NCBI GenBank assembly: GCA_921293015.1
Contig: OV121090.1
Coordinates: 2,728,001 to 2,792,000, forward strand
Length of the DNA: 64,000 nucleotides
Reading direction: 5' to 3'
Origin: Phorcus lineatus
Lineage: Eukaryota; Mollusca; Gastropoda; Trochida; Trochidae
Of the stretch, positions 9,458-44,943 are shown one piece after another (the stretch's first letter is position 1; each line of letters opens with the position of its first letter). The position numbers and the translations under genes were made by a program. The notes beneath the pieces are model-generated. The model saw only the letters and a list, made by a program, of their open reading frames with translations. It was not told the origin of the DNA and made no database searches.

Positions 9458-11105
9458 TTGATGAAAGTTTGGTTCAGAAATATGCATTTTCAAGAAAGTT
9501 ATTGCAAAAGGACTGATTTTATGGTTGTTTTCGACATAGACTTTTTCTGCAACTTTGGTCAAAATCGGATAAATGTACCTCTGCTAGGTCGAAACTGGAG
9601 CCCAAACCAAGAATCTGATAGCAAATTCATATTACTCAATCGACAGGACGCAATGTGGTGGACATTTGACCAAGGTTTGGATTCAAAATATGCATTTTGA
9701 AGAAAGTTATAACGCTAGATGCAACCGTATATATATAATAAACTTAGAAGTTTGAAGGTGGTTCAAAACTCGCTAAACGGACCTCTATAAGCTACTGTCT
9801 GGGAGCCAAACCAAGAATCTGACGGTAAATTAGTATTACTCAATCGAAAGAACACATTGTAATGTACATTTGATGAAAGTTTGGTTCAGAAATATGCATT
9901 TTCAAGAAAGTTATTGCAAAAGGACTGATTTTATGGTTGTTTTCGACTTAGAATTTTTCCGCGACTTTGGTCAAAATCGGATAAATGTACCTCTGCTAGG
10001 TCGAAACTGGAGCCCAAACCAAGAATCTGATAGCAAATTCATATTACTCAATCGACAGGACGCAATGTGGTGGACATTTGACCAAGGTTTGGATTCAAAA
10101 TATGCATTTTGAAGAAAGTTATAACGCTAGATGCAACCGTATATATATAATAAACTTAGAAGTTTGAAGGTGGTTCAAAACTCGCTAAACGGACCTCTAT
10201 AAGCTACTGTGTGGGAGCCAAACCAAGAATCTGACAGTAAATTAGTATTACTCAATCGAAAGAACACATTGTAATGTACATTTGATGAAAGTTTGGTTCA
10301 GAAATATGCATTTTCAAGAAAGTTATTGCAAAAGGACTGATTTTATGGTTGTTTTCGACTTAGACTTTTTCCGCGACTTTGGTCAAAATCGGATAAATGT
10401 ACCTCTGCTAGGTCGAAACTGGAGCCCAAACCAAAAATCTGATAGCAAATTCATATTACTCAATCGACAGGACGCAATGTGGTGGACATTTGACCAAGGT
10501 TTGGATTCAAAATATGCATTTTGAAGAAAGATATAACGATAGATGCAACCGTATGTATATAAGAAACTTAGAAGTTTGAAGGTGGTTCAAAACTCGCTTA
10601 ACGGACCTCTATAAGCTACTGTCTGGGAACCAAACCAAGAATCTGACAGTAAATTAGTATTACTCAATCGAAAGAACACATTGTAATGTACATTTGATGA
10701 AAGTTTGGTTCAGAAATATGCATTTTCAAGAAAGTTATTGCAAAAGGACTGATTTTATGGTTGTTTTCGACTTAGACTTTTTCTGCAACTTTGGTCAAAA
10801 TCGGATAAATGTACCTCTGCTAGGTCGAAACTGGAGCCCAAACCAAGAATCTGATAGCAAATTCATATTACTCAATCGACAGGACGCAATGTGGTGGACA
10901 TTTGACCAAGGTTTGGATTCAAAATATGCATTTTGAAGAAAGATATAACGATAGATGCAACCGTATGTATATAAGAAACTTAGAAGTTTGAAGGTGGTTC
11001 AAAACTCGCTTAACGGACCTCTATAAGCTACTGTCTGGGAACCAAACCAAGAATCTGACAGTAAATTAGTATTACTCAATCGAAAGAACACATTGTAATG
11101 TACAT
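9458..11105 (+). repeat. 4-unit higher-order repeat, copy 2 (1,648 bp)
   Basis: Units 23-26 repeat the tag order of units 19-22. Unit 24 has GAATTT where unit 20 has GACTTT with CGCGAATTT, and unit 25 has CAAAAATC where unit 21 has CAAGAATC. B-half tags match in all four positions, so half-A differences arose or were converted after the duplication. Confidence 0.8.
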
Positions 11106-14100
11106 TTGATGAAAGTTTGGTTCAGAAATATGCATTTTCAAGAAAGTTATTGCAAAAGGACTGATTTTATGGTTGTTTTCGACTTAGACTTTTTCCGCGA
11201 CTTTGGTCAAAATCGGATAAATGTACCTCTGCTAGGTCGAAACTGGAGCCCAAACCAAGAATCTGATAGCAAATTCATATTACTCAATCGACAGGACGCA
11301 ATGTGGTGGACATTTGACCAAGGTTTGGATTCAAAATATGCATTTTGAAGAAAGATATAACGATAGATGCAACCGTATGTATATAATAAACTTAGAAGTT
11401 TGAAGGTGGTTCAAAACTCGCTAAACGGACCTCTATAAGCTACTGTGTGGGAGCCAAACCAAGAATCTGACAGTAAATTAGTATTACTCAATCGAAAGAA
11501 CACATTGTAATGTACATTTGATGAAAGTTTGGTTCAGAAATATGCATTTTCAAGAAAGTTATTGCAAAAGGACTGATTTTATGGTTGTTTTCGACTTAGA
11601 CTTTTTCCGCGACTTTGGTCAAAATCGGATAAATGTACCTCTGCTAGGTCGAAACTGGAGCCCAAACCAAAAATCTGATAGCAAATTCATATTACTCAAT
11701 CGACAGGACGCAATGTGGTGGACATTTGACCAAGGTTTGGATTCAAAATATGCATTTTGAAGAAAGATATAACGCTAGATGCAACCGTATGTATATAAGA
11801 AACTTAGAAGTTTGAAGGTGGTTCAAAACTCGCTTAACGGACCTCTATAAGCTACTGTCTGGGAACCAAACCAAGAATCTGACAGTAAATTAGTATTACT
11901 CAATCGAAAGAACACATTGTAATGTACATTTGATGAAAGTTTGGTTCAGAAATATGCATTTTCAAGAAAGTTATTGCAAAAGGACTGATTTTATGGTTGT
12001 TTTCGACTTAGACTTTTTCTGCAACTTTGGTCAAAATCGGATAAATGTACCTCTGCTAGGTCGAAACTGGAGCCCAAACCAAGAATCTGATAGCAAATTC
12101 ATATTACTCAATCGACAGGACGCAATGTGGTGGACATTTGACCAAGGTTTGGATTCAAAATATGCATTTTGAAGAAAGATATAACGATAGATGCAACCGT
12201 ATGTATATAAGAAACTTAGAAGTTTGAAGGTGGTTCAAAACTCGCTTAACGGACCTCTATAAGCTACTGTCTGGGAACCAAACCAAGAATCTGACAGTAA
12301 ATTAGTATTACTCAATCGAAAGAACACATTGTAATGTACATTTGATGAAAGTTTGGTTCAGAAATATGCATTTTCAAGAAAGTTATTGCAAAAGGACTGA
12401 TTTTATGGTTGTTTTCGACTTAGACTTTTTCCGCGACTTTGGTCAAAATCGGATAAATGTACCTCTGCTAGGTCGAAACTGGAGCCCAAACCAAGAATCT
12501 GATAGCAAATTCATATTACTCAATCGACAGGACGCAATGTGGTGGACATTTGACCAAGGTTTGGATTCAAAATATGCATTTTGAAGAAAGATATAACGAT
12601 AGATGCAACCGTATATATATAATAAACTTAGAAGTTTGAAGGTGGTTCAAAACTCGCTAAACGGACCTCTATAAGCTACTGTGTGGGAGCCAAACCAAGA
12701 ATCTGACAGTAAATTAGTATTACTCAATCGAAAGAACACATTGTAATGTACATTTGATGAAAGTTTGGTTCAGAAATATGCATTTTCAAGAAAGTTATTG
12801 CAAAAGGACTGATTTTATGGTTGTTTTCGACTTAGACTTTTTCCGCGACTTTGGTCAAAATCGGATAAATGTACCTCTGCTAGGTCGAAACTGGAGCCCA
12901 AACCAAAAATCTGATAGCAAATTCATATTACTCAATCGACAGGACGCAATGTGGTGGACATTTGACCAAGGTTTGGATTCAAAATATGCATTTTGAAGAA
13001 AGATATAACGCTAGATGCAACCGTATGTATATAAGAAACTTAGAAGTTTGAAGGTGGTTCAAAACTCGCTTAACGGACCTCTATAAGCTACTGTCTGGGA
13101 ACCAAACCAAGAATCTGACAGTAAATTAGTATTACTCAATCGAAAGAACACATTGTAATGTACATTTGATGAAAGTTTGGTTCAGAAATATGCATTTTCA
13201 AGAAAGTTATTGCAAAAGGACTGATTTTATGGTTGTTTTCGACTTAGACTTTTTCTGCAACTTTGGTCAAAATCGGATAAATGTACCTCTGCTAGGTCGA
13301 AACTGGAGCCCAAACCAAGAATCTGATAGCAAATTCATATTACTCAATCGACAGGACGCAATGTGGTGGACATTTGACCAAGGTTTGGATTCAAAATATG
13401 CATTTTGAAGAAAGATATAACGATAGATGCAACCGTATGTATATAAGAAACTTAGAAGTTTGAAGGTGGTTCAAAACTCGCTTAACGGACCTCTATAAGC
13501 TACTGTCTGGGAACCAAACCAAGAATCTGACAGTAAATTAGTATTACTCAATCGAAAGAACACATTGTAATGTACATTTGATGAAAGTTTGGTTCAGAAA
13601 TATGCATTTTCAAGAAAGTTATTGCAAAAGGACTGATTTTATGGTTGTTTTCGACTTAGACTTTTTCTGCAACTTTGGTCAAAATCGGATAAATGTACCT
13701 CTGCTAGGTCGAAACTGGAGCCCAAACCAAGAATCTGATAGCAAATTCATATTACTCAATCGACAGGACGCAATGTGGTGGACATTTGACCAAGGTTTGG
13801 ATTCAAAATATGCATTTTGAAGAAAGATATAACGATAGATGCAACCGTATGTATATAAGAAACTTAGAAGTTTGAAGGTGGTTCAAAACTCGCTTAACGG
13901 ACCTCTATAAGCTACTGTCTGGGAACCAAACCAAGAATCTGACAGTAAATTAGTATTACTCAATCGAAAGAACACATTGTAATGTACATTTGATGAAAGT
14001 TTGGTTCAGAAATATGCATTTTCAAGAAAGTTATTGCAAAAGGACTGATTTTATGGTTGTTTTCGACTTAGACTTTTTCCGCGACTTTGGTCAAAATCGG

Positions 14101-15225
14101 ATAAATGTACCTCTGCTAGGTCGAAACTGGAGCCCAAACCAAGAATCTGATAGCAAATTCATATTACTCAATCGACAGGACGCAATGTGGTGGACATTTG
14201 ACCAAGGTTTGGATTCAAAATATGCATTTTGAAGAAAGATATAACGATAGATGCAACCGTATGTATATAATAAACTTAGAAGTTTGAAGGTGGTTCAAAA
14301 CTCGCTAAACGGACCTCTATAAGCTACTGTGTGGGAGCCAAACCAAGAATCTGACAGTAAATTAGTATTACTCAATCGAAAGAACACATTGTAATGTACA
14401 TTTGATGAAAGTTTGGTTCAGAAATATGCATTTTCAAGAAAGTTATTGCAAAAGGACTGATTTTATGGTTGTTTTCGACTTAGACTTTTTCCGCGACTTT
14501 GGTCAAAATCGGATAAATGTACCTCTGCTAGGTCGAAACTGGAGCCCAAACCAAAAATCTGATAGCAAATTCATATTACTCAATCGACAGGACGCAATGT
14601 GGTGGACATTTGACCAAGGTTTGGATTCAAAATATGCATTTTGAAGAAAGATATAACGCTAGATGCAACCGTATGTATATAAGAAACTTAGAAGTTTGAA
14701 GGTGGTTCAAAACTCGCTTAACGGACCTCTATAAGCTACTGTCTGGGAACCAAACCAAGAATCTGACAGTAAATTAGTATTACTCAATCGAAAGAACACA
14801 TTGTAATGTACATTTGATGAAAGTTTGGTTCAGAAATATGCATTTTCAAGAAAGTTATTGCAAAAGGACTGATTTTATGGTTGTTTTCGACTTAGACTTT
14901 TTCTGCAACTTTGGTCAAAATCGGATAAATGTACCTCTGCTAGGTCGAAACTGGAGCCCAAACCAAGAATCTGATAGCAAATTCATATTACTCAATCGAC
15001 AGGACGCAATGTGGTGGACATTTGACCAAGGTTTGGATTCAAAATATGCATTTTGAAGAAAGATATAACGATAGATGCAACCGTATGTATATAAGAAACT
15101 TAGAAGTTTGAAGGTGGTTCAAAACTCGCTTAACGGACCTCTATAAGCTACTGTCTGGGAACCAAACCAAGAATCTGACAGTAAATTAGTATTACTCAAT
15201 CGAAAGAACACATTGTAATGTACAT
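10282..15225 (+). repeat. 3-unit higher-order repeat (1,236-bp period), about four copies
   Basis: Units 25-36 cycle through three types. First, CAAAAATC half A with the GTATGTATATAAG/CTTAAC/GGGAACC B half. Second, CTGCAA half A with the same B half. Third, CAAGAATC and CCGCGA half A with ATAATAAAC and TGTGTGGGAGCC. Cycles start at 10282, 11518, 12754 and 14402. The third cycle has one extra CTGCAA unit (13578-13989). The cycle breaks at 15226. The block overlaps the second 4-unit copy and the start of the 30-unit HOR, so it is an older layer nested in both. Confidence 0.82.
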
Positions 15226-15504
15226 TTGATGAAAGTTTGGTTCAGAAATATGCATTTTCAAGAAAGTTATTGCAAAAGGACTGATTTTATGGTTGTTTTC
15301 GACTTAGAATTTTTCCGCGACTTTGGTCAAAATCGGATAAATGTACCTCTGCTAGGTCGAAACTGGAGCCCAAACCAAGAATCTGATAGCAAATTCATAT
15401 TACTCAATCGACAGGACGCAATGTGGTGGACATTTGACCAAGGTTTGGATTCAAAATATGCATTTTGAAGAAAGTTATAACGCTAGATGCAACCGTATAT
15501 ATAT

Positions 15505-15520
15505 AAAAAAAACTTATATT
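15505..15520 (+). other. 7-bp length variant (A-run plus ATATT gain), one of four sites
   Basis: Here the 5-bp gain is joined to a longer A-run: TATATATAAGAAAC becomes TATATATAAAAAAAAC (+2 bp), making the unit 419 bp. The four units start at 15226, 28015, 46592 and 50307. Each is a GAATTT unit with TGTGTGGGAGCC, and each is followed at once by a CGACATAGAC plus CTGCAA unit. They therefore share one ancestral two-unit haplotype. The 7-bp form probably derives from the 5-bp form. Confidence 0.92.
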
Positions 15521-16344
15521 AGAAGTTTGAAGGTGGTTCAAAACTCGCTAAACGGACCTCTATAAGCTACTGTGTGGGAGCCAAACCAAGAATCTGACAG
15601 TAAATTAGTATTACTCAATCGAAAGAACACATTGTAATGTACATTTGATGAAAGTTTGGTTCAGAAATATGCATTTTCAAGAAAGTTATTGCAAAAGGAC
15701 TGATTTTATGGTTGTTTTCGACATAGACTTTTTCTGCAACTTTGGTCAAAATCGGATAAATGTACCTCTGCTAGGTCGAAACTGGAGCCCAAACCAAGAA
15801 TCTGATAGCAAATTCATATTACTCAATCGACAGGACGCAATGTGGTGGACATTTGACCAAGGTTTGGATTCAAAATATGCATTTTGAAGAAAGTTATAAC
15901 GCTAGATGCAACCGTATATATATAAGAAACTTAGAAGTTTGAAGGTGGTTCAAAACTCGCTAAACGGACCTCTATAAGCTACTGTCTGGGAGCCAAACCA
16001 AGAATCTGACGGTAAATTAGTATTACTCAATCGAAAGAACACATTGTAATGTACATTTGATGAAAGTTTGGTTCAGAAATATGCATTTTCAAGAAAGTTA
16101 TTGCAAAAGGACTGATTTTATGGTTGTTTTCGACTTAGACTTTTTCCGCGACTTTGGTCAAAATCGGATAAATGTACCTCTGCTAGGTCGAAACTGGAGC
16201 CCAAACCAAGAATCTGATAGCAAATTCATATTACTCAATCGACAGGACGCAATGTGGTGGACATTTGACCAAGGTTTGGATTCAAAATATGCATTTTGAA
16301 GAAAGTTATAACGCTAGATGCAACCGTATATATATAAGAAACTT

Positions 16345-16349
16345 ATATT
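16345..16349 (+). other. 5-bp length variant (ATATT gain), one of nine sites
   Basis: In half B the sequence AACTTAGAAG becomes AACTTATATTAGAAG, making that unit 417 bp. The exact inserted register is ambiguous. Units with the gain start at 16057, 20182, 28846, 33383, 37920, 40397, 42462, 44527 and 56494; the 37920 copy reads ATAGT instead of ATATT. A single origin followed by spread through duplication is the simplest reading. These units are the best anchors for the HOR map. Confidence 0.93.
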
Positions 16350-19300
16350 AGAAGTTTGAAGGTGGTTCAAAACTCGCTAAACGGACCTCTATAAGCTACT
16401 GTGTGGGAGCCAAACCAAGAATCTGACAGTAAATTAGTATTACTCAATCGAAAGAACACATTGTAATGTACATTTGATGAAAGTTTGGTTCAGAAATATG
16501 CATTTTCAAGAAAGTTATTGCAAAAGGACTGATTTTATGGTTGTTTTCGACTTAGACTTTTTCCGCGACTTTGGTCAAAATCGGATAAATGTACCTCTGC
16601 TAGGTCGAAACTGGAGCCCAAACCAAAAATCTGATAGCAAATTCATATTACTCAATCGACAGGACGCAATGTGGTGGACATTTGACCAAGGTTTGGATTC
16701 AAAATATGCATTTTGAAGAAAGATATAACGATAGATGCAACCGTATGTATATAAGAAACTTAGAAGTTTGAAGGTGGTTCAAAACTCGCTTAACGGACCT
16801 CTATAAGCTACTGTCTGGGAACCAAACCAAGAATCTGACAGTAAATTAGTATTACTCAATCGAAAGAACACATTGTAATGTACATTTGATGAAAGTTTGG
16901 TTCAGAAATATGCATTTTCAAGAAAGTTATTGCAAAAGGACTGATTTTATGGTTGTTTTCGACATAGACTTTTTCTGCAACTTTGGTCAAAATCGGATAA
17001 ATGTACCTCTGCTAGGTCGAAACTGGAGCCCAAACCAAGAATCTGATAGCAAATTCATATTACTCAATCGACAGGACGCAATGTGGTGGACATTTGACCA
17101 AGGTTTGGATTCAAAATATGCATTTTGAAGAAAGTTATAACGCTAGATGCAACCGTATATATATAATAAACTTAGAAGTTTGAAGGTGGTTCAAAACTCG
17201 CTAAACGGACCTCTATAAGCTACTGTCTGGGAGCCAAACCAAGAATCTGACAGTAAATTAGTATTACTCAATCGAAAGAACACATTGTAATGTACATTTG
17301 ATGAAAGTTTGGTTCAGAAATATGCATTTTCAAGAAAGTTATTGCAAAAGGACTGATTTTATGGTTGTTTTCGACATAGACTTTTTCCGCGACTTTGGTC
17401 AAAATCGGATAAATGTACCTCTGCTAGGTCGAAACTGGAGCCCAAACCAAGAATCTGATAGCAAATTCATATTACTCAATCGACAGGACGCAATGTGGTG
17501 GACATTTGACCAAGGTTTGGATTCAAAATATGCATTTTGAAGAAAGTTATAACGCTAGATGCAACCGTATATATATAAGAAACTTAGAAGTTTGAAGGTG
17601 GTTCAAAACTCGCTAAACGGACCTCTATAAGCTACTGTCTGGGAGCCAAACCAAGAATTTGACAGTAAATTAGTATTACTCAATCGAAAGAACACATTGT
17701 AATGTACATTTGATGAAAGTTTGGTTCAGAAATATGCATTTTCAAGAAAGTTATTGCAAAAGGACTGATTTTATGGTTGTTTTCGACTTAGAATTTTTCC
17801 GCGACTTTGGTCAAAATCGGATAAATGTACCTCTGCTAGGTCGAAACTGGAGCCCAAACCAAGAATCTGATAGCAAATTCATATTACTCAATCGACAGGA
17901 CGCAATGTGGTGGACATTTGACCAAGGTTTGGATTCAAAATATGCATTTTGAAGAAAGTTATAACGCTAGATGCAACCGTATATATATAAGAAACTTAGA
18001 AGTTTGAAGGTGGTTCAAAACTCGCTAAACGGACCTCTATAAGCTACTGTCTGGGAGCCAAACCAAGAATCTGACGGTAAATTAGTATTACTCAATCGAA
18101 AGAACACATTGTAATGTACATTTGATGAAAGTTTGGTTCAGAAATATGCATTTTCAAGAAAGTTATTGCAAAAGGACTGATTTTATGGTTGTTTTCGACT
18201 TAGACTTTTTCCGCGACTTTGGTCAAAATCGGATAAATGTACCTCTGCTAGGTCGAAACTGGAGCCCAAACCAAGAATCTGATAGCAAATTCATATTACT
18301 CAATCGACAGGACGCAATGTGGTGGACATTTGACCAAGGTTTGGATTCAAAATATGCATTTTGAAGAAAGTTATAACGCTAGATGCAACCGTATATATAT
18401 AATAAACTTAGAAGTTTGAAGGTGGTTCAAAACTCGCTAAACGGACCTCTATAAGCTACTGTGTGGGAGCCAAACCAAGAATCTGACAGTAAATTAGTAT
18501 TACTCAATCGAAAGAACACATTGTAATGTACATTTGATGAAAGTTTGGTTCAGAAATATGCATTTTCAAGAAAGTTATTGCAAAAGGACTGATTTTATGG
18601 TTGTTTTCGACTTAGACTTTTTCCGCGACTTTGGTCAAAATCGGATAAATGTACCTCTGCTAGGTCGAAACTGGAGCCCAAACCAAAAATCTGATAGCAA
18701 ATTCATATTACTTAATCGACAGGACGCAATGTGGTGGACATTTGACCAAGGTTTGGATTCAAAATATGCATTTTGAAGAAAGTTATAACGCTAGATGCAA
18801 CCGTATATATATAAGAAACTTAGAAGTTTGAAGGTGGTTCAAAACTCGCTAAACGGACCTCTATAAGCTACTGTGTGGGAGCCAAACCAAGAATCTGACA
18901 GTAAATTAGTATTACTCAATCGAAAGAACACATTGTAATGTACATTTGATGAAAGTTTGGTTCAGAAATATGCATTTTCAAGAAAGTTATTGCAAAAGGA
19001 CTGATTTTATGGTTGTTTTCGACTTAGAATTTTTTCGCGACTTTGGTCAAAATCGGATAAATGTACCTCTGCTAGGTCGAAACTGGAGCCCAAACCAAGA
19101 ATCTGATAGCAAATTCATATTACTCAATCGACAGGACGCAATGTGGTGGACATTTGACCAAGGTTTGGATTCAAAATATGCATTTTGAAGAAAGTTATAA
19201 CGCTAGATGCAACCGTATATATATAATAAACTTAGAAGTTTGAAGGTGGTTCAAAACTCGCTAAACGGACCTCTATAAGCTACTGTCTGGGAGCCAAACC

Positions 19301-22300
19301 AAAAATCTGACGGTAAATTAGTATTACTCAATCGAAAGAACACATTGTAATGTACATTTGATGAAAGTTTGGTTCAGAAATATGCATTTTCAAGAAAGTT
19401 ATTGCAAAAGGACTGATTTTATGGTTGTTTTCGACTTAGACTTTTTCCGCGACTTTGGTCAAAATCGGATAAATGTACCTCTGCTAGGTCGAAACTGGAG
19501 CCCAAACCAAAAATCTGATAGCAAATTCATATTACTCAATCGACAGGACGCAATGTGGTGGACATTTGACCAAGGTTTGGATTCAAAATATGCATTTTGA
19601 AGAAAGTTATAACGCTAGATGCAACCGTATATATATAAGAAACTTAGAAGTTTGAAGGTGGTTCAAAACTCGCTAAACGGACCTCTATAAGCTACTGTGT
19701 GGGAGCCAAACCAAGAATCTGACAGTAAATTAGTATTACTCAATCGAAAGAACACATTGTAATGTACATTTGATGAAAGTTTGGTTCAGAAATATGCATT
19801 TTCAAGAAAGTTATTGCAAAAGGACTGATTTTATGGTTGTTTTCGACTTAGAATTTTTTCGCGACTTTGGTCAAAATCGGATAAATGTACCTCTGCTAGG
19901 TCGAAACTGGAGCCCAAACCAAGAATCTGATAGCAAATTCATATTACTCAATCGACAGGACGCAATGTGGTGGACATTTGACCAAGGTTTGGATTCAAAA
20001 TATGCATTTTGAAGAAAGTTATAACGCTAGATGCAACCGTATATATATAATAAACTTAGAAGTTTGAAGGTGGTTCAAAACTCTCTAAACGGACCTCTAT
20101 AAGCTACTGTCTGGGAGCCAAACCAAGAATCTGACGGTAAATTAGTATTACTCAATCGAAAGAACACATTGTAATGTACATTTGATGAAAGTTTGGTTCA
20201 GAAATATGCATTTTCAAGAAAGTTATTGCAAAAGGACTGATTTTATGGTTGTTTTCGACTTAGACTTTTTCCGCGACTTTGGTCAAAATCGGATAAATGT
20301 ACCTCTGCTAGGTCGAAACTGGAGCCCAAACCAAGAATCTGATAGCAAATTCATATTACTCAATCGACAGGACGCAATGTGGTGGACATTTGACCAAGGT
20401 TTGGATTCAAAATATGCATTTTGAAGAAAGTTATAACGCTAGATGCAACCGTATATATATAAGAAACTTATATTAGAAGTTTGAAGGTGGTTCAAAACTC
20501 GCTAAACGGACCTCTATAAGCTACTGTGTGGGAGCCAAACCAAGAATCTGACAGTAAATTAGTATTACTCAATCGAAAGAACACATTGTAATGTACATTT
20601 GATGAAAGTTTGGTTCAGAAATATGCATTTTCAAGAAAGTTATTGCAAAAGGACTGATTTTATGGTTGTTTTCGACTTAGACTTTTTCCGCGACTTTGGT
20701 CAAAATCGGATAAATGTACCTCTGCTAGGTCGAAACTGGAGCCCAAACCAAGAATCTGATAGCAAATTCATATTACTCAATCGACAGGACGCAATGTGGT
20801 GGACATTTGACCAAGGTTTGGATTCAAAATATGCATTTTGAAGAAAGTTATAACGCTAGATGCAACCGTATATATATAATAAACTTAGAAGTTTGAAGGT
20901 GGTTCAAAACTCGCTAAACGGACCTCTATAAGCTACTGTCTGGGAGCCAAACCAAGAATCTGACAGTAAATTAGTATTACTCAATCGAAAGAACACATTG
21001 TAATGTACATTTGATGAAAGTTTGGTTCAGAAATATGCATTTTCAAGAAAGTTATTGCGAAAGGACTGATTTTATGGTTGTTTTCGACTTAGAATTTTTC
21101 CGCGACTTTGGTCAAAATCGGATAAATGTACCTCTGCTAGGTCGAAACTGGAGCCCAAACCAAGAATCTGATAGCAAATTCATATTACTCAATCGACAGG
21201 ACGCAATGTGGTGGACATTTGACCAAGGTTTGGATTCAAAATATGCATTTTGAAGAAAGTTATAACGCTAGATGCAACCGTATATATATAAGAAACTTAG
21301 AAGTTTGAAGGTGGTTCAAAACTCGCTTAACGGACCTCTATAAGCTACTGTCTGGGAACCAAACCAAGAATCTGACAGTAAATTAGTATTACTCAATCGA
21401 AAGAACACATTGTAATGTACATTTGATGAAAGTTTGGTTCAGAAATATGCATTTTCAAGAAAGTTATTGCAAAAGGACTGATTTTATGGTTGTTTTCGAC
21501 TTAGAATTTTTCCGCGACTTTGGTCAAAATCGGATAAATGTACCTCTGCTAGGTCGAAACTGGAGCCCAAACCAAGAATCTGATAGCAAATTCATATTAC
21601 TCAATCGACAGGACGCAATGTGGTGGACATTTGACCAAGGTTTGGATTCAAAATATGCATTTTGAAGAAAGTTATAACGCTAGATGCAACCGTATATATA
21701 TAAGAAACTTAGAAGTTTGAAGGTGGTTCAAAACTCGCTAAACGGACCTCTATAAGCTACTGTGTGGGAGCCAAACCAAGAATCTGACAGTAAATTAGTA
21801 TTACTCAATCGAAAGAACACATTGTAATGTACATTTGATGAAAGTTTGGTTCAGAAATATGCATTTTCAAGAAAGTTATTGCAAAAGGACTGATTTTATG
21901 GTTGTTTTCGACTTAGACCTTTTCCGCGACTTTGGTCAAAATCGGATAAATGTACCTCTGCTAGGTCGAAACTGGAGCCCAAACCAAAAATCTGATAGCA
22001 AATTCATATTACTCAATCGACAGGATGCAATGTGGTGGACATTTGACCAAGGTTTGGATTCAAAATATGCATTTTGAAGAAAGTTATAACGCTAGATGCA
22101 ACCGTATATATATAAGAAACTTAGAAGTTTGAAGGTGGTTCAAAACTCGCTAAACGGACCTCTATAAGCTACTGTGTGGGAGCCAAACCAAGAATCTGAC
22201 AGTAAATTAGTATTACTCAATCGAAAGAACACATTGTAATGTACATTTGATGAAAGTTTGGTTCAGAAATATGCATTTTCAAGAAAGTTATTGCAAAAGG

Positions 22301-25130: not shown

Positions 25131-28100
25131 TTGATGAAAGTTTGGTTCAGAAATATGCATTTTCAAGAAAGTTATTGCAAAAGGACTGATTTTATGGTTG
25201 TTTTCGACTTAGACTTTTTCCGCGACTTTGGTCAAAATCGGATAAATGTACCTCTGCTAGGTCGAAACTGGAGCCCAAACCAAAAATCTGATAGCAAATT
25301 CATATTACTCAATCGACAGGACGCAATGTGGTGGACATTTGACCAAGGTTTGGATTCAAAATATGCATTTTGAAGAAAGATATAACGCTAGATGCAACCG
25401 TATGTATATAAGAAACTTAGAAGTTTGAAGGTGGTTCAAAACTCGCTTAACGGACCTCTATAAGCTACTGTCTGGGAACCAAACCAAGAATCTGACAGTA
25501 AATTAGTATTACTCAATCGAAAGAACACATTGTAATGTACATTTGATGAAAGTTTGGTTCAGAAATATGCATTTTCAAGAAAGTTATTGCAAAAGGACTG
25601 ATTTTATGGTTGTTTTCGACTTAGACTTTTTCTGCAACTTTGGTCAAAATCGGATAAATGTACCTCTGCTAGGTCGAAACTGGAGCCCAAACCAAGAATC
25701 TGATAGCAAATTCATATTACTCAATCGACAGGACGCAATGTGGTGGACATTTGACCAAGGTTTGGATTCAAAATATGCATTTTGAAGAAAGATATAACGA
25801 TAGATGCAACCGTATGTATATAAGAAACTTAGAAGTTTGAAGGTGGTTCAAAACTCGCTTAACGGACCTCTATAAGCTACTGTCTGGGAACCAAACCAAG
25901 AATCTGACAGTAAATTAGTATTACTCAATCGAAAGAACACATTGTAATGTACATTTGATGAAAGTTTGGTTCAGAAATATGCATTTTCAAGAAAGTTATT
26001 GCAAAAGGACTGATTTTATGGTTGTTTTCGACTTAGACTTTTTCTGCAACTTTGGTCAAAATCGGATAAATGTACCTCTGCTAGGTCGAAACTGGAGCCC
26101 AAACCAAGAATCTGATAGCAAATTCATATTACTCAATCGACAGGACGCAATGTGGTGGACATTTGACCAAGGTTTGGATTCAAAATATGCATTTTGAAGA
26201 AAGATATAACGATAGATGCAACCGTATGTATATAAGAAACTTAGAAGTTTGAAGGTGGTTCAAAACTCGCTAAACGGACCTCTATAAGCTACTGTCTGGG
26301 AACCAAACCAAGAATCTGACAGTAAATTAGTATTACTCAATCGAAAGAACACATTGTAATGTACATTTGATGAAAGTTTGGTTCAGAAATATGCATTTTC
26401 AAGAAAGTTATTGCAAAAGGACTGATTTTATGGTTGTTTTCGACTTAGACTTTTTCCGCGACTTTGGTCAAAATCGGATAAATGTACCTCTGCTAGGTCG
26501 AAACTGGAGCCCAAACCAAGAATCTGATAGCAAATTCATATTACTCAATCGACAGGACGCAATGTGGTGGACATTTGACCAAGGTTTGGATTCAAAATAT
26601 GCATTTTGAAGAAAGATATAACGATAGATGCAACCGTATATATATAATAAACTTAGAAGTTTGAAGGTGGTTCAAAACTCGCTAAACGGACCTCTATAAG
26701 CTACTGTGTGGGAGCCAAACCAAGAATCTGACAGTAAATTAGTATTACTCAATCGAAAGAACACATTGTAATGTACATTTGATGAAAGTTTGGTTCAGAA
26801 ATATGCATTTTCAAGAAAGTTATTGCAAAAGGACTGATTTTATGGTTGTTTTCGACTTAGACTTTTTCCGCGACTTTGGTCAAAATCGGATAAATGTACC
26901 TCTGCTAGGTCGAAACTGGAGCCCAAACCAAAAATCTGATAGCAAATTCATATTACTCAATCGACAGGACGCAATGTGGTGGACATTTGACCAAGGTTTG
27001 GATTCAAAATATGCATTTTGAAGAAAGATATAACGCTAGATGCAACCGTATGTATATAAGAAACTTAGAAGTTTGAAGGTGGTTCAAAACTCGCTTAACG
27101 GACCTCTATAAGCTACTGTCTGGGAACCAAACCAAGAATCTGACAGTAAATTAGTATTACTCAATCGAAAGAACACATTGTAATGTACATTTGATGAAAG
27201 TTTGGTTCAGAAATATGCATTTTCAAGAAAGTTATTGCAAAAGGACTGATTTTATGGTTGTTTTCGACTTAGACTTTTTCTGCAACTTTGGTCAAAATCG
27301 GATAAATGTACCTCTGCTAGGTCGAAACTGGAGCCCAAACCAAGAATCTGATAGCAAATTCATATTACTCAATCGACAGGACGCAATGTGGTGGACATTT
27401 GACCAAGGTTTGGATTCAAAATATGCATTTTGAAGAAAGATATAACGATAGATGCAACCGTATGTATATAAGAAACTTAGAAGTTTGAAGGTGGTTCAAA
27501 ACTCGATAAACGGACCTCTATAAGCTACTGTCTGGGAACCAAACCAAGAATCTGACAGTAAATTAGTATTACTCAATCGAAAGAACACATTGTAATGTAC
27601 ATTTGATGAAAGTTTGGTTCAGAAATATGCATTTTCAAGAAAGTTATTGCAAAAGGACTGATTTTATGGTTGTTTTCGACTTAGAATTTTTCCGCGACTT
27701 TGGTCAAAATCGGATAAATGTACCTCTGCTAGGTCGAAACTGGAGCCCAAACCAAGAATCTGATAGCAAATTCATATTACTCAATCGACAGGACGCAATG
27801 TGGTGGACATTTGACCAAGGTTTGGATTCAAAATATGCATTTTGAAGAAAGTTATAACGCTAGATGCAACCGTATATATATAATAAACTTAGAAGTTTGA
27901 AGGTGGTTCAAAACTCGCTAAACGGACCTCTATAAGCTACTGTCTGGGAGCCAAACCAAGAATCTGACGGTAAATTAGTATTACTCAACCGAAAGAACAC
28001 ATTGTAATGTACATTTGATGAAAGTTTGGTTCAGAAATATGCATTTTCAAGAAAGTTATTGCAAAAGGACTGATTTTATGGTTGTTTTCGACTTAGAATT

Positions 28101-31100
28101 TTTCCGCGACTTTGGTCAAAATCGGATAAATGTACCTCTGCTAGGTCGAAACTGGAGCCCAAACCAAGAATCTGATAGCAAATTCATATTACTCAATCGA
28201 CAGGACGCAATGTGGTGGACATTTGACCAAGGTTTGGATTCAAAATATGCATTTTGAAGAAAGTTATAACGCTAGATGCAACCGTATATATATAAAAAAA
28301 ACTTATATTAGAAGTTTGAAGGTGGTTCAAAACTCGCTAAACGGACCTCTATAAGCTACTGTGTGGGAGCCAAACCAAGAATCTGACAGTAAATTAGTAT
28401 TACTCAATCGAAAGAACACATTGTAATGTACATTTGATGAAAGTTTGGTTCAGAAATATGCATTTTCAAGAAAGTTATTGCAAAAGGACTGATTTTATGG
28501 TTGTTTTCGACATAGACTTTTTCTGCAACTTTGGTCAAAATCGGATAAATGTACCTCTGCTAGGTCGAAACTGGAGCCCAAACCAAGAATCTGATAGCAA
28601 ATTCATATTACTCAATCGACAGGACGCAATGTGGTGGACATTTGACCAAGGTTTGGATTCAAAATATGCATTTTGAAGAAAGTTATAACGCTAGATGCAA
28701 CCGTATATATATAATAAACTTAGAAGTTTGAAGGTGGTTCAAAACTCGCTAAACGGACCTCTATAAGCTACTGTCTGGGAGCCAAACCAAGAATCTGACG
28801 GTAAATTAGTATTACTCAATCGAAAGAACACATTGTAATGTACATTTGATGAAAGTTTGGTTCAGAAATATGCATTTTCAAGAAAGTTATTGCAAAAGGA
28901 CTGATTTTATGGTTGTTTTCGACTTAGACTTTTTCCGCGACTTTGGTCAAAATCGGATAAATGTACCTCTGCTAGGTCGAAACTGGAGCCCAAACCAAGA
29001 ATCTGATAGCAAATTCATATTACTCAATCGACAGGACGCAATGTGGTGGACATTTGACCAAGGTTTGGATTCAAAATATGCATTTTGAAGAAAGTTATAA
29101 CGCTAGATGCAACCGTATATATATAAGAAACTTATATTAGAAGTTTGAAGGTGGTTCAAAACTCGCTAAACGGACCTCTATAAGCTACTGTGTGGGAGCC
29201 AAACCAAGATTCTGACAGTAAATTAGTATTACTCAATCGAAAGAACACATTGTAATGTACATTTGATGAAAGTTTGGTTCAGAAATATGCATTTTCAAGA
29301 AAGTTATTGCAAAAGGACTGATTTTATGGTTGTTTTCGACTTAGACTTTTTCCTCGACTTTGGTCAAAATCGGATAAATGTACCTCTGCTAGGTCGAAAC
29401 TGGAGCCCAAACCAAAAATCTGATAGCAAATTCATATTACTCAATCGACAGGACGCAATGTGGTGGACATTTGACCAAGGTTTGGATTCAAAATATGCAT
29501 TTTGAAGAAAGATATAACGCTAGATGCAACCGTATGTATATAAGAAACTTAGAAGTTTGAAGGTGGTTCAAAACTCGCTTAACGGACCTCTATAAGCTAC
29601 TGTCTGGGAACCAAACCAAGAATCTGACAGTAAATTAGTATTACTCAATCGAAAGAACACATTGTAATGTACATTTGATGAAAGTTTGGTTCAGAAATAT
29701 GCATTTTCAAGAAAGTTATTGCAAAAGGACTGATTTTATGGTTGTTTTCGACATAGACTTTTTCTGCAACTTTGGTCAAAATCGGATAAATGTACCTCTG
29801 CTAGGTCGAAACTGGAGCCCAAACCAAGAATCTGATAGCAAATTCATATTACTCAATCGACAGGACGCAATGTGGTGGACATTTGACCAAGGTTTGGATT
29901 CAAAATATGCATTTTGAAGAAAGTTATAACGCTAGATGCAACCGTATGTATATAATAAACTTAGAAGTTTGAAGGTGGTTCAAAACTCGCTAAACGGACC
30001 TCTATAAGCTACTGTCTGGGAGCCAAACCAAGAATCTGACAGTAAATTAGTATTACTCAATCGAAAGAACACATTGTAATGTACATTTGATGAAAGTTTG
30101 GTTCAGAAATATGCATTTTCAAGAAAGTTATTGCAAAAGGACTGATTTTATGGTTGTTTTCGACATAGACTTTTTCCGCGACTTTGGTCAAAATCGGATA
30201 AATGTACCTCTGCTAGGTCGAAACTGGAGCCCAAACCAAGAATCTGATAGCAAATTCATATTACTCAATCGACAGGACGCAATGTGGTGGACATTTGACC
30301 AAGGTTTGGATTCAAAATATGCATTTTGAAGAAAGTTATAACGCTAGATGCAACCGTATATATATAAGAAACTTAGAAGTTTGAAGGTGGTTCAAAACTC
30401 GCTAAACGGACCTCTATAAGCTACTGTCTGGGAGCCAAACCAAGAATTTGACAGTAAATTAGTATTACTCAATCGAAAGAACACATTGTAATGTACATTT
30501 GATGAAAGTTTGGTTCAGAAATATGCATTTTCAAGAAAGTTATTGCAAAAGGACTGATTTTATGGTTGTTTTCGACTTAGAATTTTTCCGCGACTTTGGT
30601 CAAAATCGGATAAATGTACCTCTGCTAGGTCGAAACTGGAGCCCAAACCAAGAATCTGATAGCAAATTCATATTACTCAATCGACAGGACGCAATGTGGT
30701 GGCCATTTGACCAAGGTTTGGATTCAAAATATGCATTTTGAAGAAAGTTATAACGCTAGATGCAACCGTATATATATAAGAAACTTAGAAGTTTGAAGGT
30801 GGTTCAAAACTCGCTAAACGGACCTCTATAAGCTACTGTCTGGGAGCCAAACCAAGAATCTGACGGTAAATTAGTATTACTCAATCGAAAGAACACATTG
30901 TAATGTACATTTGATGAAAGTTTGGTTCAGAAATATGCATTTTCAAGAAAGTTATTGCAAAAGGACTGATTTTATGGTTGTTTTCGACTTAGACTTTTTC
31001 CGCGACTTTGGTCAAAATCGGATAAATGTACCTCTGCTAGGTCGAAACTGGAGCCCAAACCAAGAATCTGATAGCAAATTCATATTACTCAATCGACAGG

Positions 31101-34100
31101 ACGCAATGTGGTGGACATTTGACCAAGGTTTGGATTCAAAATATGCATTTTGAAGAAAGTTATAACGCTAGATGCAACCGTATATATATAATAAACTTAG
31201 AAGTTTGAAGGTGGTTCAAAACTCGCTAAACGGACCTCTATAAGCTACTGTGTGGGAGCCAAACCAAGAATCTGACAGTAAATTAGTATTACTCAATCGA
31301 AAGAACACATTGTAATGTACATTTGATGAAAGTTTGGTTCAGAAATATGCATTTTCAAGAAAGTTATTGCAAAAGGACTGATTTTATGGTTGTTTTCGAC
31401 TTAGACTTTTTCCGCGACTTTGGTCAAAATCGGATAAATGTACCTCTGCTAGGTCGAAACTGGAGCCCAAACCAAAAATCTGATAGCAAATTCATATTAC
31501 TTAATCGACAGGACGCAATGTGGTGGACATTTGACCAAGGTTTGGATTCAAAATATGCATTTTGAAGAAAGTTATAACGCTAGATGCAACCGTATATATA
31601 TAAGAAACTTAGAAGTTTGAAGGTGGTTCAAAACTCGCTAAACGGACCTCTATAAGCTACTGTGTGGGAGCCAAACCAAGAATCTGACAGTAAATTAGTA
31701 TTACTCAATCGAAAGAACACATTGTAATGTACATTTGATGAAAGTTTGGTTCAGAAATATGCATTTTCAAGAAAGTTATTGCAAAAGGACTGATTTTATG
31801 GTTGTTTTCGACTTAGAATTTTTCCGCGACTTTGGTCAAAATCGGATAAATGTACCTCTGCTAGGTCGAAACTGGAGCCCAAACCAAGAATCTGATAGCA
31901 AATTCATATTACTCAATCGACAGGACGCAATGTGGTGGACATTTGACCAAGGTTTGGATTCAAAATATGCATTTTGAAGAAAGTTATAACGCTAGATGCA
32001 ACCGTATATATATAATAAACTTAGAAGTTTGAAGGTGGTTCAAAACTCGCTAAACGGACCTCTATAAGCTACTGTGTGGGAGCCAAACCAAGAATCTGAC
32101 AGTAAATTAGTATTACTCAATCGAAAGAACACATTGTAATGTACATTTGATGAAAGTTTGGTTCAGAAATATGCATTTTCAAGAAAGTTATTGCAAAAGG
32201 ACTGATTTTATGGTTGTTTTCGACTTAGACCTTTTCCGCGACTTTGGTCAAAATCGGATAAATGTACCTCTGCTAGGTCGAAACTGGAGCCCAAACCAAA
32301 AATCTGATAGCAAATTCATATTACTCAATCGACAGGACGCAATGTGGTGGACATTTGACCAAGGTTTGGATTCAAAATATGCATTTTGAAGAAAGTTATA
32401 ACGCTAGATGCAACCGTATATATATAAGAAACTTAGAAGTTTGAAGGTGGTTCAAAACTCGCTAAACGGACCTCTATAAGCTACTGTCTGGGAGCCAAAC
32501 CAAAAATCTGACGGTAAATTAGTATTACTCAATCGAAAGAACACATTGTAATGTACATTTGATGAAAGTTTGGTTCAGAAATATGCATTTTCAAGAAAGT
32601 TATTGCAAAAGGACTGATTTTATGGTTGTTTTCGACTTAGACTTTTTCCGCGACTTTGGTCAAAATCGGATAAATGTACCTCTGCTAGGTCGAAACTGGA
32701 GCCCAAACCAAAAATCTGATAGCAAATTCATATTACTCAATCGACAGGACGCAATGTGGTGGACATTTGACCAAGGTTTGGATTCAAAATATGCATTTTG
32801 AAGAAAGTTATAACGCTAGATGCAACCGTATATATATAAGAAACTTAGAAGTTTGAAGGTGGTTCAAAACTCGCTAAACGGACCTCTATAAGCTACTGTG
32901 TGGGAGCCAAACCAAGAATCTGACAGTAAATTAGTATTACTCAATCGAAAGAACACATTGTAATGTACATTTGATGAAAGTTTGGTTCAGAAATATGCAT
33001 TTTCAAGAAAGTTATTGCAAAAGGACTGATTTTATGGTTGTTTTCGACTTAGAATTTTTTCGCGACTTTGGTCAAAATCGGATAAATGTACCTCTGCTAG
33101 GTCGAAACTGGAGCCCAAACCAAGAATCTGATAGCAAATTCATATTACTCAATCGACAGGACGCAATGTGGTGGACATTTGACCAAGGTTTGGATTCAAA
33201 ATATGCATTTTGAAGAAAGTTATAACGCTAGATGCAACCGTATATATATAATAAACTTAGAAGTTTGAAGGTGGTTCAAAACTCGCTAAACGGACCTCTA
33301 TAAGCTACTGTCTGGGAGCCAAACCAAGAATCTGACGGTAAATTAGTATTACTCAATCGAAAGAACACATTGTAATGTACATTTGATGAAAGTTTGGTTC
33401 AGAAATATGCATTTTCAAGAAAGTTATTGCAAAAGGACTGATTTTATGGTTGTTTTCGACTTAGACTTTTTCCGCGACTTTGGTCAAAATCGGATAAATG
33501 TACCTCTGCTAGGTCGAAACTGGAGCCCAAACCAAGAATCTGATAGCAAATTCATATTACTCAATCGACAGGACGCAATGTGGTGGACATTTGACCAAGG
33601 TTTGGATTCAAAATATGCATTTTGAAGAAAGTTATAACGCTAGATGCAACCGTATATATATAAGAAACTTATATTAGAAGTTTGAAGGTGGTTCAAAACT
33701 CGCTAAACGGACCTCTATAAGCTACTGTCTGGGAGCCAAACCAAGAATCTGACAGTAAATTAGTATTACTCAATCGAAAGAACACATTGTAATGTACATT
33801 TGATGAAAGTTTGGTTCAGAAATATGCATTTTCAAGAAAGTTATTGCGAAAGGACTGATTTTATGGTTGTTTTCGACTTAGAATTTTTCCGCGACTTTGG
33901 TCAAAATCGGATAAATGTACCTCTGCTAGGTCGAAACTGGAGCCCAAACCAAGAATCTGATAGCAAATTCATATTACTCAATCGACAGGACGCAATGTGG
34001 TGGACATTTGACCAAGGTTTGGATTCAAAATATGCATTTTGAAGAAAGTTATAACGCTAGATGCAACCGTATATATATAAGAAACTTAGAAGTTTGAAGG

Positions 34101-37100
34101 TGGTTCAAAACTCGCTAAACGGACCTCTATAAGCTACTGTCTGGGAGCCAAACCAAGAATCTGACGGTAAATTAGTATTACTCAACCGAAAGAACACATT
34201 GTAATGTACATTTGATGAAAGTTTGGTTCAGAAATATGCATTTTCAAGAAAGTTATTGCAAAAGGACTGATTTTATGGTTGTTTTCGACTTAGACCTTTT
34301 CCGCGACTTTGGTCAAAATCGGATAAATGTACCTCTGCTAGGTCGAAACTGGAGCCCAAACCAAAAATCTGATAGCAAATTCATATTACTCAATCGACAG
34401 GACGCAATGTGGTGGACATTTGACCAAGGTTTGGATTCAAAATATGCATTTTGAAGAAAGTTATAACGCTAGATGCAACCGTATATATATAAGAAACTTA
34501 GAAGTTTGAAGGTGGTTCAAAACTCGCTAAACGGACCTCTATAAGCTACTGTGTGGGAGCCAAACCAAGAATCTGACAGTAAATTAGTATTACTCAATCG
34601 AAAGAACACATTGTAATGTACATTTGATGAAAGTTTGGTTCAGAAATATGCATTTTCAAGAAAGTTATTGCAAAAGGACTGATTTTATGGTTGTTTTCGA
34701 CTTAGAATTTTTTCGCGACTTTGGTCAAAATCGGATAAATGTACCTCTGCTAGGTCGAAACTGGAGCCCAAACCAAGAATCTGATAGCAAATTCATATTA
34801 CTCAATCGACAGGACGCAATGTGGTGGACATTTGACCAAGGTTTGGATTCAAAATATGCATTTTGAAGAAAGTTATAACGCTAGATGCAACCGTATATAT
34901 ATAATAAACTTAGAAGTTTGAAGGTGGTTCAAAACTCGCTAAACGGACCTCTATAAGCTACTGTCTGGGAGCCAAACCAAGAATCTGACAGTAAATTAGT
35001 ATTACTCAATCGAAAGAACACATTGTAATGTACATTTGATGAAAGTTTGGTTCAGAAATATGCATTTTCAAGAAAGTTATTGCAAAAGGACTGATTTTAT
35101 GGTTGTTTTCGACTTAGACTTTTTCCGCGACTTTGGTCAAAATCGGATAAATGTACCTCTGCTAGGTCGAAACTGGAGCCCAAACCAAGAATCTGATAGC
35201 AAATTCATATTACTCAATCGACAGGACGCAATGTGGTGGACATTTGACCAAGGTTTGGATTCAAAATATGCATTTTGAAGAAAGTTATAACGCTAGATGC
35301 AACCGTATATATATAAGAAACTTAGAAGTTTGAAGGTGGTTCAAAACTCGCTAAACGGACCTCTATAAGCTACTGTCTGGGAGCCAAACCAAGAATCTGA
35401 CGGTAAATTAGTATTACTCAATCGAAAGAACACATTGTAATGTACATTTGATGAAAGTTTGGTTCAGAAATATGCATTTTCAAGAAAGTTATTGCAAAAG
35501 GACTGATTTTATGGTTGTTTTCGACTTAGAATTTTTCCGCGACTTTGGTCAAAATCGGATAAATGTACCTCTGCTAGGTCGAAACTGGAGCCCAAACCAA
35601 GAATCTGATAGCAAATTCATATTACTCAATCGACAGGACGCAATGTGGTGGACATTTGACCAAGGTTTGGATTCAAAATATGCATTTTGAAGAAAGTTAT
35701 AACGCTAGATGCAACCGTATATATATAATAAACTTAGAAGTTTGAAGGTGGTTCAAAACTCGCTAAACGGACCTCTATAAGCTACTGTGTGGGAGCCAAA
35801 CCAAGAATCTGACAGTAAATTAGTATTACTCAATCGAAAGAACACATTGTAATGTACATTTGATGAAAGTTTGTTTCAGAAATATGCATTTTCAAGAAAG
35901 TTATTGCAAAAGGACTGATTTTATGGTTGTTTTCGACTTAGACCTTTTCCGCGACTTTGGTCAAAATCGGATAAATGTACCTCTGCTAGGTCGAAACTGG
36001 AGCCCAAACCAAGAATCTGATAGCAAATTCATATTACTCAATCGACAGGACGCAATGTGGTGGACATTTGACCAAGGTTTGGATTCAAAATATGCATTTT
36101 GAAGAAAGTTATAACGCTAGATGCAACCGTATATATATAAGAAACTTAGAAGTTTGAAGGTGGTTCAAAACTCGCTAAACGGACCTCTATAAGCTACTGT
36201 GTGGGAGCCAAACCAAGAATCTGACAGTAAATTAGTATTACTCAATCGAAAGAACACATTGTAATGTACATTTGATGAAAGTTTGGTTCAGAAATATGCA
36301 TTTTCAAGAAAGTTATTGCAAAAGGACTGATTTTATGGTTGTTTTCGACTTAGAATTTTTTCGCGACTTTGGTCAAAATCGGATAAATGTACCTCTGCTA
36401 GGTCGAAACTGGAGCCCAAACCAAGAATCTGATAGCAAATTCATATTACTCAATCGACAGGACGCAATGTGGTGGACATTTGACCAAGGTTTGGATTCAA
36501 AATATGCATTTTGAAGAAAGTTATAACGCTAGATGCAACCGTATATATATAATAAACTTAGAAGTTTGAAGGTGGTTCAAAACTCGCTAAACGGACCTCT
36601 ATAAGCTACTGTCTGGGAGCCAAACCAAGAATCTGACGGTAAATTAGTATTACTCAATCGAAAGAACACATTGTAATGTACATTTGATGAAAGTTTGGTT
36701 CAGAAATATGCATTTTCAAGAAAGTTATTGCAAAAGGACTGATTTTATGGTTGTTTTCGACTTAGAATTTTTCCGCGACTTTGGTCAAAATCGGATAAAT
36801 GTACCTCTGCTAGGTCGAAACTGGAGCCCAAACCAAGAATCTGATAGCAAATTCATATTACTCAATCGACAGGACGCAATGTGGTGGACATTTGACCAAG
36901 GTTTGGATTCAAAATATGCATTTTGAAGAAAGTTATAACGCTAGATGCAACCGTATATATATAATAAACTTAGAAGTTTGAAGGTGGTTCAAAACTCGCT
37001 AAACGGACCTCTATAAGCTACTGTCTGGGAGCCAAACCAAGAATCTGACGGTAAATTAGTATTACTCAATCGAAAGAACACATTGTAATGTACATTTGAT

Positions 37101-37507
37101 GAAAGTTTGGTTCAGAAATATGCATTTTCAAGAAAGTTATTGCAAAAGGACTGATTTTATGGTTGTTTTCGACTTAGACTTTTTCCGCGACTTTGGTCAA
37201 AATCGGATAAATGTACCTCTGCTAGGTCGAAACTGGAGCCCAAACCAAAAATCTGATAGCAAATTCATATTACTCAATCGACAGGACGCAATGTGGTGGA
37301 CATTTGACCAAGGTTTGGATTCAAAATATGCATTTTGAAGAAAGTTATAACGCTAGATGCAACCGTATATATATAAGAAACTTAGAAGTTTGAAGGTGGT
37401 TCAAAACTCGCTAAACGGACCTCTATAAGCTACTGTCTGGGAGCCAAACCAAGAATCTGACAGTAAATTAGTATTACTCAATCGAAAGAACACATTGTAA
37501 TGTACAT
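25131..37507 (+). repeat. 30-unit higher-order repeat, copy 2 (12,377 bp)
   Basis: Units 61-90 mirror units 31-60: 7-bp gain (28015), CGACATAGAC plus CTGCAA (28434), 5-bp gain (28846), CGACATAGAC with GAATTTGAC (30087), TTACTTAATCGAC (near 31496), 5-bp gain (33383), TTGCGAAAGG (near 33845) and GACCTTTTCC (34212 and 35860). Whole-unit differences cancel in length. Copy 2 has an extra unit at 27603 and two units (31735, 32147) where copy 1 has one (18946). It lacks counterparts of copy-1 units 20599 and 21423. Private changes in copy 2 include TTCCTCGAC near 29350 and GTGGCCATT near 30700. Confidence 0.87.
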
Positions 37508-44526: not shown

Positions 44527-44943
44527 TTGATGAAAGTTTGGTTCAGAAATATGCATTTTCAAGAAAGTTATTGCAAAAGGACTGATTTTATGGTTGTTTT
44601 CGACTTAGACTTTTTCCGCGACTTTGGTCAAAATCGGATAAATGTACCTCTGCTAGGTCGAAACTGGAGCCCAAACCAAGAATCTGATAGCAAATTCATA
44701 TTACTCAATCGACAGGACGCAATGTGGTGGACATTTGACCAAGGTTTGGATTCAAAATATGCATTTTGAAGAAAGTTATAACGCTAGATGCAACCGTATA
44801 TATATAAGAAACTTATATTAGAAGTTTGAAGGTGGTTCAAAACTCGCTTAACGGACCTCTATAAGCTACTGTGTGGGAGCCAAACCAAGAATCTGACAGT
44901 AAATTAGTATTACTCAATCGAAAGAACACATTGTAATGTACAT

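What the first reader, a model, noticed from the sequence alone, without database searches (positions are those of the whole stretch)
12754..37507. Two adjacent 30-unit (12,377-bp) higher-order repeat copies
Tag by tag, units 31-60 reappear in order as units 61-90: paired CTGCAA units, 7-bp gain, 5-bp gain, GAATTTGAC, TTACTTAATCGAC, second 5-bp gain, TTGCGAAAGG, two GACCTTTTCC units, final CAAAAATC unit. Both copies are exactly 12,377 bp although they differ by whole-unit gains and losses that cancel. A 30-mer of a 412-bp dimer is a very long HOR period and implies large-scale unequal exchange or segmental amplification in this array.
Basis: seen in the sequence. Interest (0 to 1): 0.75.

Follow-up and report, generated by a model that had tools for sequence, protein, structure and literature searches.

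The report
Tandemly doubled satellite block in topshell
A 12.4-kilobase stretch of a repetitive DNA array on what appears to be a sea-snail chromosome has been copied once, side by side: a real but ordinary trace of how such arrays grow by misaligned recombination.

Summary
The window is wholly a 412-bp dimeric satellite (209+203 bp halves). Total span and two scaffold lengths match the published assembly of the thick topshell Phorcus lineatus; the window would lie on chromosome 10. Aligning the 155 units blindly against each other, the best match is units 32-61 (12771-25147) against 62-91 (25148-37524), both 12,377 bp. Twenty-eight of 30 units pair, with 25 edits (0.22%) against 1.7% between units at large; two units are unpaired on each side. 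Score 75; 1000 unit shuffles reach at most 23, 1000 six-unit block shuffles 46.

'Higher-order repeat period' is not supported: only two copies are seen, and one diagnostic tag occurs exactly twice in the whole assembly, once per copy. Elsewhere the array repeats mainly at lags of 2-12 units. The best reading is one large tandem duplication by in-register unequal exchange, followed by small unit gains or losses. Comparable duplications are described in human satellite arrays. An assembly fault is unlikely but not excluded, since no reads or alternate haplotype could be examined. New member of a known kind; modest interest.

The parts
1..64000 (+). 412-bp dimeric satellite array filling the whole window (about 155 units; halves 209 and 203 bp)
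   Evidence: TRF: 412-bp period, 155.2 copies, 98% matches; 155 units; halves of the commonest unit 145 of 189 aligned bases identical
12771..25147 (+). Copy 1 of the duplicated block, units 32-61, 12,377 bp
25148..37524 (+). Copy 2 of the duplicated block, units 62-91, 12,377 bp
25061..25213 (+). Inferred exchange interval at the junction: 153 bp within which the position of the join cannot be told, the repeat phase being kept
   Evidence: 87 bp identity leftwards from 12770/25147 and 66 bp rightwards from 25148/37525
20616..21027 (+). Unit 51, unpaired in copy 2
21440..21851 (+). Unit 53, unpaired in copy 2
27620..28031 (+). Unit 68, unpaired in copy 1; differs by 11 edits from either neighbour, so not a fresh copy of an adjacent unit
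32164..32575 (+). Unit 79, unpaired in copy 1; carries the third GACCTTTTCC tag of copy 2
18963..19374 (+). Unit 47 of copy 1; fits a hybrid of units 78 and 79 with 1 residual edit (4 and 5 edits to each alone), as a one-unit deletion by recombination would leave; weak evidence
   Evidence: 11.3% of 292 random trials did as well
33400..33816 (+). Unit 82 of copy 2; fits a hybrid of units 50 and 51 with 0 residual edits (1 and 2 edits to each alone); weak evidence
   Evidence: 5.1% of 292 random trials did as well
3296..15242 (+). Short-lag duplications: units 9-33 align with units 12-37 at lags of about 3-4 units
   Evidence: row 1; score 43, 23 pairs, 5 gaps; coordinates
31340..45372 (+). Short-lag duplications: units 77-105 align with units 84-110 at lags of about 5-7 units
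   Evidence: row 2; score 36, 26 pairs, 4 gaps; coordinates

Best explanation
A 412-bp satellite array grew by one large tandem duplication. Two misaligned but in-phase copies of the array (sister chromatids or homologues) recombined about 30 units out of register, or a break was repaired by copying from such a misaligned template, leaving 30 units twice in a row with a join at which the repeat phase is kept. Afterwards each copy gained point changes and gained or lost single units, two units' difference on each side, so that the lengths happen to be equal again. Shown: the block, its order, identity, phase and limits. Inferred: the recombination route and the order of events. The block has no function of its own that I can show; a role of the satellite in centromeric or pericentromeric chromatin is possible but untested.
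For: Score 75 against a maximum of 23 (1000 unit shuffles) and 46 (1000 block shuffles); in-register 0.89 versus out-of-register 6.70 edits. The two copies abut with no spacer unit, units 61/91 and 32/62 being identical. The unit phase is kept through a 153-bp identity tract at the join. The same kind of event at smaller scale is frequent nearby: lags of 2-12 units over 2,683-2,783 kb, and lags of about 7-11 units in a second array on scaffold C14. The copies differ by 25 edits in 11,553 bp plus four units, as expected of an event older than the sequencing.
Against: No reads, alternate haplotype or second individual was examined, so the junction is seen only in one assembly. Crossing-over, break-induced replication and replication slippage cannot be told apart from sequence alone. 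Hybrid-unit scars expected of unit deletion are at best weak: two candidates (units 47, 82) fit, unit 83 does not (3-4 residual edits for each of three pairings), and chance does as well in 5-11% of 292 trials. Of the paired units, 47/78 and 52/83 differ by 4 edits.
Confidence: 0.82

Rival explanations
1. Assembly artefact: the two copies are the two haplotypes of one block, or a graph path walked twice, joined head to tail by the assembler.
For: The assembly note reports 83 haplotypic duplications removed by curation and a purge_dups step, so such faults occurred in this project; 0.22% divergence with a few unit differences is the kind of difference alleles could show. A 200-N scaffold gap lies in the same array at C16:2,846,510-2,846,709, outside the window. 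The array was polished with 10X short reads, which can err in repeats.
Against: No N in the window. An exactly abutting, in-phase join is what recombination gives, though an overlap-based misjoin would give it too.
Confidence: 0.12
2. A true higher-order repeat with a 30-unit period, of which the window happens to show two of many copies.
For: Two adjacent copies in strict order. Long multimers are known in other satellites, for example a 36-mer variant in human DYZ3 (passage seen).
Against: The TTGCGAAAGG-context tag occurs only twice in the assembly. Over 409 units of the extended array no third copy of the block appears among the nine local matches found (one weak match at lag 33-34, score 20, mean 2.47 edits). 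Stretches C16:2,652,001-2,682,000 and 2,852,001-2,900,000 were read only in part (2 kb at 2,870,001), and the 200-N gap is of unknown size.
Confidence: 0.04
3. Chance or selection-driven resemblance of ordered units without common descent as a block.
For: Units are already alike (1.7% mean difference), so some ordered matches arise by chance.
Against: Observed 75 against at most 46 in 2000 shuffles of two kinds.
Confidence: 0.01

Closest known systems
Recent large duplications inside human centromeric alpha-satellite arrays (for example DXZ1 on chromosome X)
   Same: A long run of satellite units, already homogenised, duplicated as a block inside the array. [quoted passage not shown]
   Different: Here 12.4 kb, in an apparent gastropod, in an unrelated 412-bp satellite; CENP-A status unknown; one individual only.
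CentGm-4, the 413-bp centromeric satellite of soybean, with dimer-to-pentamer chromosome-specific multimers
   Same: Similar unit length, chromosome-specific homogenisation and short multimers (PMC11447526, parts 1-3 of 6 read).
   Different: Coincidence of length only: the genome here is apparently a mollusc's, the CentGm-4 sequence itself was not compared, and the multimer lags differ.
PcH-sat of the limpet Patella caerulea (179 bp)
   Same: A gastropod satellite placed at centromeric/pericentromeric regions of some chromosomes by FISH (PMC11121367, passages seen).
   Different: Different unit length; sequence not compared; no block duplication described in the passages seen.
Human alpha-satellite higher-order repeats, including long ones such as the DYZ3 36-mer variant
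   Same: Unit dimers homogenised at a higher level; very long multimers exist (figure legend in PMC9859433).
   Different: Those recur many times and so define a period; the 30-unit block is seen twice.

Membership tests
Tandem segmental duplication inside a satellite array | Two adjacent blocks, same orientation, same unit order, closer to each other than to other parts of the array | tested here: met
   28 of 30 units paired, 0.89 versus 6.70 edits
Tandem segmental duplication inside a satellite array | Present in the chromosome and not made by the assembler | not testable with these tools
   No reads or alternate haplotype at hand; indirect evidence only
Higher-order repeat with a 30-unit period | The multimer recurs as the period of an array stretch (more than one extra copy) | tested here: not met
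   Tag found twice genome-wide; no third copy over 409 units; parts of the array not read
Higher-order repeat with a 30-unit period | Copies of the multimer much more alike than the units inside it | tested here: met
   0.22% between copies against 1.7% between units
Dimeric (412-bp) satellite | Two related but distinct halves alternating along the array | tested here: met
   Halves 145 of 189 aligned bases identical; alternating 209/203 spacings (partial output of a script that timed out)
Centromeric satellite | Bound by the centromeric histone | not testable with these tools
   No ChIP data. No exact CENP-B box on either strand of the window, which does not decide it
Soybean CentGm-4 | Sequence identity with CentGm-4 in a Glycine genome | tested here: inconclusive
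   CentGm-4 letters were not available. Glycine is made unlikely by an invertebrate-type mitochondrial COX1, no Glyco_hydro_14 match and sizes matching Phorcus lineatus. Recalled CentGm-1 letters found nothing, with no positive control

The most novel reading that the evidence does not exclude
The block is the founding step of a new long higher-order repeat: unequal exchange about 30 units out of register is a preferred event in this array (for instance set by a chromatin-loop or replication scale of about 12 kb), so that other individuals carry three or more copies and the array is turned over in 12-kb steps rather than unit by unit.
Probability: 0.05. Interest if true: 0.55.

Novelty: new member of a known kind. 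Interest (0 to 1): 0.24.

Why it matters
It gives a clean, dateable example in an apparent mollusc of a satellite array growing by a single 30-unit step, beside many smaller steps of 2-12 units, and so shows that the mode of growth described for human arrays is not special to them. If long reads confirm it, the pair offers a natural gauge (25 edits plus four unit differences) for how fast fresh satellite copies diverge and lose units. It does not change ideas of how satellites evolve.

Tried and rejected
Species lead rejected: unit length and a literature hit suggested soybean CentGm-4. Bowman-Birk PF00228 found nothing, but its controls rang nowhere either, so it is uninformative. Glyco_hydro_14 PF01373: no match, 0 candidates. 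COX1 on scaffold C74 reads through with the invertebrate code, 516 aa in table 5; the echinoderm-type codes also leave it open, but table 5 keeps lysine where I recall it conserved. Of two genome notes with 957.8 Mb, Phorcus lineatus has chromosomes of 62.25 and 49.55 Mb matching C7 and C16; the planthopper note has neither number in its text, and 504 scaffolds.

Haplotype check: the unplaced scaffold C14 (100 units) against C16 (409 units) gave no local unit alignment scoring 10 or more, so C14 is not a colinear alternate of the part read, although the two share identical units (29 zero-distance pairs).

Result that ranks above the finding: over the extended array the top local match is not the 30-unit block but a long short-lag chain (score 87; 210 pairs, 56 gaps, mean 2.94 edits), the block being second at 75 (20 shuffles, max 15). 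Within the window the block is first.

Mechanism: hybrid-unit scars of unit deletion were sought; two weak fits, one failure. Pfam scan of a reverse-transcriptase-like reading frame from C16:3.2 Mb gave 0 families, so that label is only by eye. ARAGORN on L045 found 0 tRNAs. Searches for '412 bp' with satellite terms and for Phorcus with satellite DNA found 0 papers; in a library of open-licence papers this does not show that nothing is in print.

Full report
Setting. The window is G000:C16:2,728,001-2,792,000 of a 957,807,699-base genome in 74 scaffolds. Its total span and the lengths of C7 (62,246,125) and C16 (49,551,290) match the Darwin Tree of Life note for Phorcus lineatus (957.8 Mb; chromosome 4, 62.25 Mb; chromosome 10, 49.55 Mb; passages and section 5 read). 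A complete-looking COX1 on C74 uses an invertebrate-type code. The identification is by sizes and is not a sequence match.

The array. Tandem Repeats Finder sees one array over the whole window, period 412, 155.2 copies, 98% matches. Anchoring gives 155 units, 93 of them distinct, at a mean distance of 7.06 edits, 1.7%. The unit is a dimer of 209- and 203-bp halves, 145 of 189 aligned bases identical. The array extends beyond the window: satellite is seen from 2,676,600 (tag) to 2,872,000; 2-kb samples at 2,650,001 and 2,900,001 are not satellite. A gap of 200 N lies at 2,846,510-2,846,709, 54.5 kb right of the window. Genome-wide the anchor word occurs 3042 times with up to 2 mismatches; only the first 100 places are listed, on C7 and C8, but C14 and C16 carry it too.

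The duplication. A Smith-Waterman alignment of the string of units against itself, with no prior position given, returns units 32-61 against 62-91 as the best match in the window: 28 pairs, four unit gaps, 25 edits, 11 of 28 pairs identical. Both blocks are 12,377 bp. At base level the diagonal sits at 12,377, then 12,789, then 13,201, then 12,377 again. Shuffling units (1000) gives at most 23; shuffling blocks of six (1000), which keeps short-range repetition, gives at most 46; the observed score is 75.

Limits and junction. Left of 12771/25148 the two sequences agree for 87 bp and right of 25148/37525 for 66 bp, so the exchange can be placed only within 25061-25213, inside a tract where the units agree. 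Beyond it similarity falls back to background: units 31/61 differ by 5 edits, 30/60 by 10, 62/92 by 12. The copies abut with the unit phase kept, as homologous recombination between units would give.

Not a period. The 35-mer around TTGCGAAAGG occurs twice in the whole assembly, at 2,749,043 and 2,761,832, once in each copy. The 36-mer around TTACTTAATCGAC occurs 18 times: 2 in the copies and 16 at 2,676,600-2,700,541. Over 409 units of the extended array nine local matches score 20 or more: a short-lag chain (lags mainly 2-6, some 12; score 87), the 30-unit block (75), and seven others with lags of 8-13, 12-17, 10-11, 20-24, 2-3, 6-7 and 33-34 units (scores 39 to 20). The 33-34 match is weak (mean 2.47 edits). 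So the 30-unit block is the only long-lag match of high identity, and it is seen twice.

Other arrays. Units of C7 and C8 are alike (mean 2.4 edits), and both stand apart from C16 (13.4 and 13.9); C14 lies nearer C16 (9.0; 29 zero-distance pairs) (10 kb each of C7 and C8 and 41.4 kb of C14). That is chromosome- or locus-specific homogenisation, as in other satellites. C14 has its own preferred lags, about 7-11 units and multiples of these.

Mechanism. Unequal in-register exchange explains the block, its phase and its limits. Later single-unit changes are shown by the unpaired units, but whether they were losses or gains is inferred. Unit 68 differs by 11 edits from both neighbours, so a fresh copy of an adjacent unit is unlikely and loss from copy 1 is simpler. 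Hybrid units expected from unit deletion: unit 47 fits 78|79 with 1 edit and unit 82 fits 50|51 with 0, but unit 83 does not fit any of three pairings well (3-4 edits), and 5.1% (0 edits) to 11.3% (1 or fewer) of 292 random trials do as well. This is weak support.

Artefact. The assembly was made from 32-fold HiFi reads with Hifiasm 0.15.3, purge_dups and 10X polishing; 83 haplotypic duplications were removed by curation. The copies differ on average once in about 460 bp and share no exact stretch longer than 1154 bp, so reads of usual length should separate them. Without the reads or the alternate haplotype I cannot exclude a misjoin, and I give it 0.12.

Known or new. Large block duplications within satellite arrays are described in human centromeres (DXZ1, hundreds of kilobases in two genomes; passage in PMC9859433), and short multimers in a 413-bp plant satellite (PMC11447526, parts 1-3 of 6 read). 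Searches of an open-licence library with gastropod, mollusc and Phorcus terms listed no paper on this satellite; only listings were seen except where stated. The satellite itself may be undescribed, but the event is of a known kind.

Noticed in passing
G000:C14, about 41.4 kb (L023, 1400 bases in); and C14:80,001-82,000, 120,001-122,000 (L040, L041): The 412-bp array on unplaced scaffold C14 ends directly in an unrelated 167-bp satellite. A word of that satellite occurs 15,060 times genome-wide with up to 2 mismatches (first 100 places listed, on C1 and C5), far more than the 412-bp anchor, so the 167-bp repeat may be the main centromeric satellite and the 412-bp one a neighbour.
   Followed up: partly
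G000:C16:2,600,001-2,602,000 and 2,650,001-2,652,000 (L029, L030): A 167-bp period lies left of the window's array too. By eye it resembles the C14 repeat in inverse orientation, but the exact 27-mers tested were absent on both strands, so it is a diverged relative at best.
   Followed up: partly
G000:C16:2,683,460-2,698,715 (L044, L009): The left part of the array repeats at lags of 4, 8, 12, 16, 20 and 24 units, which suggests a four-unit (about 1648-bp) multimer; this, not the 30-unit block, looks like a real higher-order period.
   Followed up: partly
G000:C14:1-41,400 (L019-L023): The C14 array shows lags of about 7-11 units with weaker matches at about twice and three times that, a different local multimer from the one on C16.
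   Followed up: partly
G000:C16:2,799,181 onwards (L013-L016): Right of the window, 6 units of 386 bp carry a 26-bp shorter form not seen among the window's 155 spacings.
   Followed up: no
G000:C16:2,846,510-2,846,709 (L018): A 200-N scaffold gap sits inside the array, so its true length is unknown.
   Followed up: no
G000:C16:2,300,001 / 2,400,001 / 2,500,001 (L026, L027, L028): Three sampled 2-kb stretches left of the array are minisatellites with periods of 61, 29 and 47 bp.
   Followed up: no
L044 and L023, open frames of 92 codons: Most satellite units hold the same 92-codon open frame; probably a chance frame in a repeat, not tested.
   Followed up: no
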